64,000 bases of DNA from Gammaproteobacteria bacterium (GTDB lineage: Bacteria; Pseudomonadota; Gammaproteobacteria; SZUA-229), in contig JABDRN010000112.1 in assembly GCA_013041745.1 (NCBI GenBank), positions 1 through 64,000 of the forward strand. Direction: 5' to 3'. The first letter of the stretch is position 1; each line of letters begins with the position of its first letter. The position numbers and the translations under genes are program-made. Below, in pieces: positions 30,829-38,027 of the stretch. The notes below the pieces were generated by a model. The model was not told the origin of the DNA and did not search any database. It saw only the letters and a list, made by a program, of their open reading frames with translations.

Positions 30829-31018
30829 TGACATCTCTAGGGTGTACGTAAGCTACCTGTAATATCCCTTGAGCCTTAAATACTGACTTTGGGAATTGGA
30901 CTGTTGAGGCCGTGTGCATTACCGTTTCGACGGGAAGCCTAACGCAGCATCGCTGGTTCCCCCCTGAACTTACCGGTTCAAGGTCAACAGTATTTGCTAC
31001 GGCACTCCGGAGATGTCA
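30829..31018 (+). ncRNA. ssrS: 6S RNA
   Basis: Regulatory RNA that binds sigma-70 RNA polymerase by mimicking an open promoter. Ends GACATCTC (30830-30837) and GGAGATGTC (31009-31017) pair as the closing stem. The hallmark CCTGAACTTACCGGTTCAAGG lies in the 3' half and ACGGCACTCCGGAG near the end. Position between zapA and ygfA is the conserved location. The exact ends are estimated from stem closure. Confidence 0.95.
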
Positions 31019-36354: not shown

Positions 36355-36744
36355 TTAGCGTTTCGAGAACTGCGTAGCACGGCGTGCTTTGCGCAGACCC
36401 ACTTTCTTACGCTCGACCTCACGCGCATCACGTGTTACGAAACCGGCTTTACGCAGAGGGCTGCGCAAGGCCTCATCATAGGAGATCAATGCACGGGTGA
36501 TACCATGACGTATGGCACCTGCCTGGCCTGAGATACCTCCGCCAGTTACAGTGACGTTTAGATCAACATTGTTTACCATATCGACCAGTTCCAGGGGCTG
36601 ACGTACGATCATCTGTGCTGTTTTACGGCCAAAGAACACATCCAGTGGTTTACCGTTAACTTTGATCTCACCAGCGCCAGTACTTAGAAATACACGTGCA
36701 CTTGATGTTTTGCGTCGACCTGTTGCGTAATATTGTTCTGCCAT
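36355..36744 (-). CDS. rpsI: 30S ribosomal protein S9
   Basis: Small-subunit protein of 129 residues whose C-terminal tail reaches the P-site tRNA. The start [14 protein letters not shown], the [19 protein letters not shown] segment and the universal FSKR end are all present. It is the second gene of the rplM-rpsI pair and is followed by a strong terminator. Confidence 0.99.
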
Positions 36745-36770: not shown

Positions 36771-37202
36771 TTAATTAATTTCTAATGGTTGTGGCTGCTG
36801 CGCGGCATGTTGATGCTGCGGACCTGCATAGACTTTCAGCTTACGGTACATCTCACGCCCTAAGGGATTTCTTGGTAGCATACCCTTAACAGCAATCTCT
36901 ATAACACGCTCTGGTGAACGATCGATCATATCGCTGAAATTCGTTTCTTTCAGTCCACCCATGTAACCTGAATGACGGTAGTACATCTTATCTTTCGCCT
37001 TGTTACCGCTAACACGTACTTTCTCGGCATTGATCACTACGATGTAATCCCCTGTATCAACGTGCGGCGTGTATATCGCTTTATGCTTACCGCGTAGACG
37101 GCGTGCAATCTCAGTAGCCAGGCGACCCAATGTTTTACCGTCGGCATCGACCAGGAACCAGTCACGTTTTACGTCATCAGCTTTCGCGCTTATGGTTTTC
37201 AT
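36771..37202 (-). CDS. rplM: 50S ribosomal protein L13
   Basis: Early-assembly large-subunit protein of 143 residues. Typical segments are [35 protein letters not shown] and [18 protein letters not shown]. The ATG at 37202 is preferred to the preceding in-frame GTG. It is 26 bp upstream of rpsI; in E. coli L13 represses this operon by binding its leader, and the leader here lies in 37203-37330. Confidence 0.99.
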
Positions 37203-37561
37203 CACTAAATCCGGTATATCTGTATATTAATAAAGCGAAGGTCGGTCTGGCCGACCCGCGACAAAGAGGCGGAATATTACAGGGATTCGCTTAAGCAGAC
37301 AAGCCTAATACTCGCTTTTTGTGAAATTAATTAACAGACTGCTAATAAACAAATGGCAGATCATCCTGCCGCCACTACACGAGCAGATATGTAACCACAT
37401 AAAAATAACTGTAGAGCCTTATGGCAACACGCACCCGAAGCCATATTTACCATATATTTCAGTTGGTTACGGCATACTGAAAACATCTTCAGCGCTTGGT
37501 TTTCAAACAAGCGGCACTCGCTTCTGAGATCTTAGCCACCTTTTAGCTAATTCGTATAAGC
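37203..37561. other. Gene-free rplM upstream region
   Basis: About 360 bp between the rplM start and the candidate small RNA. It should contain the rplM-rpsI promoter and leader. One 68-codon GTG-started frame exists on the plus strand, but it lacks a ribosome site and recognisable motifs. I see no tRNA or other RNA gene here. Confidence 0.6.
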
Positions 37562-37657
37562 AAAAAAAAGCGCGGAAAAGAATCCGCGCTGAAAATTACC
37601 ACCAAAGGGAGGATGGAGGAAATATGAAAAAAACATTTAATTGCATAAAATGTATAT
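37562..37657 (-). ncRNA. Candidate small RNA with pyrimidine-rich anti-SD-like segment
   Basis: On the minus strand a TTGACA (37690-37685), 15-bp spacer and TATAAT (37669-37664) form a near-consensus promoter. About 95 nt later comes an intrinsic terminator: stem AGCGCGGA/TCCGCGCT (37569-37590) and a U run. The intervening RNA contains UUUCCUCCAUCCUCCC, complementary to Shine-Dalgarno sequences. It lies 62 bp beyond the ferredoxin stop. The alternative is that the hairpin simply ends the ferredoxin transcript. Confidence 0.5.
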
Positions 37658-37718
37658 AAGGATATTATAATATAGTAATTAATTTGTCAAGCTACTAAGC
37701 AAATTAATCATTAGCCGC

Positions 37719-38027
37719 CTATATCAATAACCTTTCAACAATCTGACCGCCTATCAGGTGCTTGTCGATGATCTCATCGATATCTTCACGATCAAGGTAG
37801 CAATACCAGGTCTCTTCAGGATAGACCACCAGAACCGGCCCAAGTTCACAGCGATCCAGGCATCCTGCGCTGTTAATTCTGATCTTACCCTCACCGGATA
37901 AGCCTAACTCCTTGATCTTTGCTTTAGCATAGCCGCGAATCTCAGTGGCATTGCACTGTTCGCAGCACTGCTCACCTGACTCACGGGAATTTGTACAAAA
38001 AAACACGTGGTATTTATAATATGACAC
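37719..38027 (-). CDS. Thioredoxin-like [2Fe-2S] ferredoxin
   Basis: A 102-residue ferredoxin of the thioredoxin-fold type. Candidate cluster cysteines are in CTNSRESGEQCCEQC near the start and in AGCLDRCELGP (about residues 55-65), spaced as in Aquifex-type [2Fe-2S] ferredoxins. The start is GTG with AGGAG nine bases upstream. It is divergent from coq7, with 65 bp between start codons. Electron donor to a hydroxylase or respiratory complex is possible but unproven. Confidence 0.9.
   Translation of the reverse strand: MSYYKYHVFFCTNSRESGEQCCEQCNATEIRGYAKAKIKELGLSGEGKIRINSAGCLDRCELGPVLVVYPEETWYCYLDREDIDEIIDKHLIGGQIVERLLI

What the first reader, a model, noticed from the sequence alone, without database searches (positions are those of the whole stretch)
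37562..37690. Candidate minus-strand small RNA with an anti-Shine-Dalgarno-like stretch
A near-consensus promoter (TTGACA, TATAAT, 15-bp spacer), about 95 nt of RNA, and a strong intrinsic terminator sit in a gap between a ferredoxin gene and rplM. The RNA contains UUUCCUCCAUCCUCCC, complementary to ribosome-binding sites, similar in kind to the CCUCC loops of known anti-SD small RNAs of other proteobacteria. On the opposite strand the same bases look like a ribosome site followed by an 11-codon frame with a CxxC pair (37624-37659), so orientation must be settled.
Basis: partly seen in the sequence, partly recalled or inferred. Interest (0 to 1): 0.6.

Follow-up and report, generated by a model that had tools for sequence, protein, structure and literature searches.

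The report
Widespread RNA that masks ribosome sites
The stretch encodes a real small RNA that should switch genes off by sticking to the spots where ribosomes land; it is the gammaproteobacterial cousin of an RNA known so far only from Bordetella, Burkholderia and their relatives, which makes that RNA much older and more widespread than described.

Summary
On the minus strand a TTGACA/TATAAT promoter, an RNA of about 95 nt and an intrinsic terminator lie between a 2Fe-2S ferredoxin gene and rplM. The segment is retained in 44 of 54 genomes of the family (20 of 22 good-quality ones). The core CUCCUCCAYCCUCC..UUUGGUGG hardly changes, while all nine terminator pairs covary. The plus-strand 11-codon CxxC frame is not conserved.

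The RNA is homologous to RF02278 ("Betaproteobacteria toxic small RNA"), that is Bordetella pertussis S17 and Burkholderia ncS27/bdhR1, which repress translation at ribosome-binding sites. Same core, same two-hairpin shape, and in many beta- and gammaproteobacteria the same place directly upstream of rplM-rpsI. It scores 32.3 bits against Rfam's cut-off of 50, so Rfam misses it, and the papers I could read describe the family as betaproteobacterial. At 40 bits or more it occurs in about a third of sampled genomes of the class.

A lead beyond the finding: a TATTAG-N6-CTAATA palindrome overlaps the sRNA's -10 region in sulfur-lithotroph betaproteobacteria (7 of 7) and part of the gammaproteobacteria. 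It also precedes sulfide-oxidation genes, hinting at a sulfide-sensing regulon. The window's copy is degenerate (10 of 12).

The parts
37685..37690 (-). -35 element TTGACA of the sRNA promoter
   Evidence: TTGACA kept in the genus copies, once TTGACG
37662..37669 (-). -10 element: TATAAT (37664-37669, 15-nt spacer) or TAATAT (37662-37667, 17-nt spacer)
   Evidence: which register is used is not settled
37655..37672 (.). Degenerate copy (10 of 12 fixed positions) of the palindrome TATTAG-N6-CTAATA that overlaps the -10 region; candidate operator
   Evidence: perfect or 11 of 12 in 8 of 24 family copies and 7 of 7 Thiobacillus-like betas; inferred operator
37562..37657 (-). The small RNA (about 95 nt; 5' end inferred from the promoter)
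   Evidence: (gamma-only model 70.2 bits)
37633..37653 (-). 5' hairpin ACAUUU...AAAUGU (weak here, -1.7 kcal/mol for the 36-nt 5' segment; strong with other sequences in many relatives)
37607..37622 (-). UUUCCUCCAUCCUCCC: anti-Shine-Dalgarno stretch
37599..37616 (-). Core hairpin CCAUC / CUCCCUUU loop / GGUGG (one U-G pair; C-G in most betas)
   Evidence: 99.4% of cells paired; four of five pairs never vary, so covariation is silent here
37562..37590 (-). Intrinsic terminator: stem 37569-37590 and seven-U tract
   Evidence: all 9 pairs of the aligned helix have changes on both sides
37719..38027 (-). 2Fe-2S ferredoxin gene, upstream neighbour on the same strand
   Evidence: conserved neighbour in many gammas
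36771..37205 (-). rplM, downstream neighbour; rpsI follows at 36355-36744
37274..37302 (-). Separate rplM promoter TTGTCT-17-TAATAT, conserved in relatives, downstream of the sRNA terminator

Best explanation
A stand-alone, sigma-70-transcribed, trans-acting small RNA encoded on the minus strand. Its U-rich terminator tail suits Hfq binding. The unpaired CUCCU and the CUCCC(UUU) loop of the core hairpin pair with GGAGG-type ribosome-binding sites of several mRNAs and block ribosome entry. It is the gammaproteobacterial homologue of B. pertussis S17 and B. cenocepacia ncS27/bdhR1 (Rfam RF02278), still at the ancestral place next to fdx/coq7 and rplM-rpsI. Shown here: anatomy, conservation, covariation of the terminator, homology with the beta family, shared synteny, one hfq gene in the genome. 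Inferred: expression, Hfq binding, repression of targets and the conditions of expression.
For: Conserved in 44 of 54 family genomes, 13 of 14 genera. The core hardly varies in family copies fetched with the whole 181-nt segment, while the terminator pairs covary (0 of 500 shuffles reach the score; slid controls fail). RF02278 is its best Rfam match (32.3 bits, E 5.8e-5), and gamma copies elsewhere also match RF02278 below the cut-off (31-39 bits). Beta copies pass the RF02278 cut-off (61-71 bits). A gamma-only model finds all 20 beta copies tested at 43-67 bits. rplM lies within 1.5 kb downstream on the same strand in 23 of 41 gamma and 30 of 58 beta loci where this could be seen, and in 22 of the 30 class-wide loci. 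S17 lies next to coq7, which is also at this locus. hfq is present. Family members act at ribosome-binding sites (PMC11722255, PMC5688073).
Against: No transcript data. Score below Rfam's RF02278 cut-off. The core hairpin itself gives no covariation because it does not vary. Most beta and outer gamma copies were collected with a pattern that contains the core, so the invariance of the core in that set is partly by selection. In the window, duplex energies with ribosome sites are not better on average than at random gene positions, so no targets are supported. One good-quality genus member (97% complete, many contigs) has no hit.
Confidence: 0.88

Rival explanations
1. A cis-acting leader or attenuator of the rplM-rpsI operon: the hairpins would control read-through into the ribosomal-protein genes.
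For: Directly upstream of rplM in many beta and gamma genomes.
Against: A separate conserved promoter (TTGTCT-17-TAATAT, 37274-37302) lies between terminator and rplM. In 18 of 41 gamma and 28 of 58 beta loci the RNA is not followed by rplM, including cases such as Thiocapsa and Achromobacter. S17 is a free 67-nt RNA that acts in trans (PMC11722255).
Confidence: 0.05
2. A 3'-UTR-derived RNA or simply the terminator of the ferredoxin gene, without a promoter or function of its own.
For: Same strand, 28 nt between the fdx stop and the -35 element; the terminator would also end fdx transcripts.
Against: The promoter is conserved, the distance to fdx varies widely, beta copies have no fdx upstream, and a terminator does not explain the conserved CUCCUCCAUCCUCC core.
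Confidence: 0.05
3. The plus strand carries the feature: a ribosome-binding site with an 11-codon CxxC leader peptide.
For: AGGGAGGATGGAGGAAATATG followed by MKKTFNCIKCI in the window.
Against: CxxC and reading frame are not conserved even within the genus and vanish outside it. Conservation follows RNA pairing of the minus strand.
Confidence: 0.01

Closest known systems
RF02278 Betaproteobacteria toxic small RNA (B. cenocepacia ncS03/ncS05/ncS27/ncS62, bdhR1; H. seropedicae Hsnc059/063/086/107)
   Same: CU-rich core hairpin plus terminator hairpin, same core letters, same place upstream of rplM in many species
   Different: Window RNA has a shorter loop (one CUCC instead of CUCCUCC), lacks the U-A closing pair, scores below the family cut-off; gammaproteobacterial; single copy in this genome. 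Toxicity on overexpression reported for some Burkholderia members, not tested here
Bordetella pertussis S17/S17S
   Same: 27-nt conserved core at the 5' end of the short form, terminator, neighbour coq7; Hfq-dependent repression at ribosome-binding sites (PMC11722255)
   Different: S17 is made as a 190-nt precursor and cut by RNase E to 67 nt; the window RNA would start only about 35 nt upstream of the core, behind a short 5' hairpin
anti-hemB RNA of Burkholderia (RF02837)
   Same: Two hairpins with a CCUCCC stretch; sub-threshold match 27.6 bits
   Different: Cut-off 49.5 bits not met; different core sequence
Alphaproteobacterial anti-SD sRNAs such as NfeR1 and MmgR (suhB, RF00519)
   Same: Unpaired CCUCC motif aimed at ribosome-binding sites
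   Different: suhB matches at only 19.8 bits (cut-off 41); outside the class my model finds nothing above about 34 bits

Membership tests
RF02278 (Betaproteobacteria toxic small RNA) | Score at or above the curated gathering cut-off (50 bits) | tested here: not met
   32.3 bits, full model length 1-64; other gammas 31-39 bits
RF02278 (Betaproteobacteria toxic small RNA) | CU-rich core hairpin followed by intrinsic terminator (double hairpin) | tested here: met
RF02278 / S17 | Homology with beta copies judged by an independent gamma-only model | tested here: met
   20 of 20 beta loci at 43-67 bits; the loci had been chosen by a core pattern, so terminator and synteny are the independent part
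RF02278 / S17 | Shared genomic position (upstream of rplM, near coq7) | tested here: met
   S17 next to coq7
RF02278 / S17 | Occurs in Betaproteobacteria | tested here: not met
   closest named relatives carrying the same fdx-sRNA-rplM locus are gammaproteobacterial
RF02278 / S17 | Represses mRNAs by pairing at ribosome-binding sites, with Hfq | not testable with these tools
   hfq gene present; no target evidence from the window
RF02278 | Toxic to E. coli when overexpressed | not testable with these tools
   reported for Burkholderia members; S17 itself was not toxic in exponential growth

The most novel reading that the evidence does not exclude
In sulfur-oxidising beta- and gammaproteobacteria this anti-Shine-Dalgarno sRNA belongs to a sulfide- or persulfide-sensing regulon: an ArsR repressor of the BigR/SqrR type binds TATTAG-N6-CTAATA over its promoter and over the promoters of sulfide:quinone-oxidoreductase-like, rhodanese/persulfide-dioxygenase, RND-adaptor and sulfur-globule-like genes, so that sulfide triggers post-transcriptional repression of other genes.
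Probability: 0.35. Interest if true: 0.68.

Novelty: new member of a known kind. Interest (0 to 1): 0.5.

Why it matters
A regulator described as betaproteobacterial turns out to be shared by a large part of the Gammaproteobacteria (purple sulfur bacteria, Thiothrix, Thioalkalivibrio, Sedimenticola, Arenicella and many uncultured lineages), often at one conserved locus. This suggests descent from their common ancestor and a basic physiological role rather than one tied to virulence or biofilm. The Rfam family could be widened with the sequences collected here, and culturable sulfur bacteria become test systems.

Tried and rejected
Plus-strand 11-codon frame: rejected, not conserved. Second copy in the genome: the next-best RF02278 hit (C40) lies beside sequence that reads as 5S rRNA, so taken as a terminator match. 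rplM leader: rejected, see rivals. Target search in the window: duplex energies at gene starts are on average weaker than at random positions inside genes (-3.6 vs -5.5 kcal/mol); best candidate is the adenylate kinase gene start (9853, -15.3), not supported further. Model R2 was built with a wrongly placed structure and is ignored. Weak model hits of 24-34 bits also occur in genomes outside the class, so only hits of about 40 bits or more are counted. SqrR's published site ATTC-N8-GAAT does not match the palindrome. No paper in the library contains the gamma core sequence.

Full report
WHAT IS THERE. The region lies between a ferredoxin gene (37719-38027, minus) and rplM (36771-37205, minus).

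IS IT MORE THAN CHANCE. A DNA search with 181 nt gives hits in 29 of 58 relatives. In the hits that carry the neighbours, the order fdx, sRNA, rplM, rpsI is kept. A covariance model built from gammaproteobacterial copies only finds it in 44 of 54 genomes of the family, 20 of 22 good-quality ones and 13 of 14 genera, once per genome with few exceptions. In an alignment of 35 gamma sequences 97.7% of the cells of the proposed structure pair. All nine terminator pairs show changes on both sides, and the covariation score 0.409 compares with 0.153 +/- 0.014 in shuffles and at most 0.103 in slid controls. The core hairpin (CCAUC/GGUGG) almost never changes, so covariation cannot speak for or against it; the step from CCAUC to CCACC in most betas swaps U-G for C-G. 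The 5' hairpin changes its letters almost entirely between genera and still folds in most copies; it is weak in the window's genus.

WHICH STRAND. The plus-strand frame with its CxxC pair is not conserved even among the closest relatives, whereas promoter, core and terminator of the minus strand are.

WHAT IT IS. Rfam's best match is RF02278, 'Betaproteobacteria toxic small RNA', over the whole model but at 32.3 bits, under the cut-off of 50. All but two (L096, L145) carry a terminator behind the core; they come from Gammaproteobacteria (Thiocapsa, Chromatium, Halochromatium, Thiohalocapsa, Thioalkalivibrio, Thiothrix, Sedimenticola, Arenicella, Beggiatoa, Thiodiazotropha and others) and from Betaproteobacteria. 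Six of seven beta copies tested pass the RF02278 cut-off with 61-71 bits; the one from Chitiniphilus does not. Gamma copies match the family at 31-39 bits or not at all. The gamma-only model recovers all 20 beta copies tested at 43-67 bits. Independent of sequence, rplM follows within 1.5 kb on the same strand in 23 of 41 gamma and 30 of 58 beta loci where this can be judged, and in 22 of the 30 loci taken from a class-wide model search. B. pertussis S17 lies next to coq7, which is also at the window's locus. Common descent is the simplest reading.

HOW WIDE. With the gamma-plus-beta model 167 of 369 genomes of the class match at E up to 0.001. Because weak matches of 24-34 bits also occur in genomes outside the class, I count only hits of about 40 bits or more. 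By my reading of the table this leaves about 123 of 369 genomes; outside the class there were none. Some genomes carry several copies, partly in tandem.

HOW IT MOST LIKELY WORKS. In B. pertussis, S17 is Hfq-dependent; 70 of 92 genes that rise without it can pair near their ribosome-binding site, and direct repression of BP2158 was shown (PMC11722255). In B. cenocepacia, overexpression of ncS27 slows growth, while expressing the complement of its CU-rich region does the opposite (PMC5688073). The window RNA keeps both CU-rich sites and the terminator, and the genome has hfq. Repression of several mRNAs by masking of the ribosome site is therefore inferred with good confidence; targets are unknown, and the window gives no evidence on them.

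THE PROMOTER LEAD. Over the -10 region of many copies lies TATTAG-N6-CTAATA. At least 11 of the 12 fixed positions are present in 7 of 7 copies from Thiobacillus, Hydrogenophilaceae, Gallionellaceae and kin, in 0 of 60 other betas, in 8 of 24 copies of the window's family (13 more at 10, among them the window) and in 7 of 45 other gammas. The reversed control pattern reaches 10 in four family copies, so the window's 10 of 12 is weak by itself. Genome-wide the exact palindrome is more frequent than its reversed control (by my count 92 to 10 over the 37 family genomes; similar in most lithotrophs). The sites I inspected precede a rhodanese/persulfide-dioxygenase operon, RND adaptor genes in three different lineages, YceI genes, glycine-rich secreted proteins that resemble sulfur-globule proteins, and a sulfide:quinone-oxidoreductase-like gene in Thiothrix; others precede unrelated genes. 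The window's genome has an ArsR protein whose best solved relative is the sulfide sensor BigR, with both cysteines aligned, and a second one close to NolR and HlyU. That a BigR-like protein binds this palindrome is a guess; the published SqrR site is different.

NOVELTY. The kind of RNA is known. Papers in the library place it in Betaproteobacteria; one states 'exclusively' (PMC7011215). I found no description in Gammaproteobacteria, but subscription journals are largely not covered. I do not file it under RF02278 as defined, since its cut-off is not met; it is homologous to it and should work like it.

Noticed in passing
37655-37672 and sRNA promoters in L008, L010, L013, L016, L037, L044, L059, L099, L128, L140: Palindrome TATTAG-N6-CTAATA over the -10 region of the sRNA; the same palindrome precedes sulfur-oxidation genes in these lineages.
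   Followed up: partly
L223, L224, L225 (near position 1465): In the window's genus the palindrome precedes an operon of a small membrane peptide (about 30-35 aa), a rhodanese and an MBL-fold persulfide-dioxygenase-like protein.
   Followed up: partly
L227, L229, L256, L259, L262: Glycine-rich secreted proteins resembling sulfur-globule proteins (two of them scanned, no Pfam match), each with the palindrome in or near the promoter.
   Followed up: partly
L269, L270: Two ArsR proteins in the window's genome with a BigR/SqrR-like cysteine pair.
   Followed up: partly
30831-31017 (+): 6S RNA gene (RF00013, 79.4 bits).
   Followed up: no
G318:C3:141779-142055, G212:C27:1129-1334, G180:C83:5203-5390: Tandem copies of the sRNA, two or three within 300 nt, in some other genomes of the class.
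   Followed up: no
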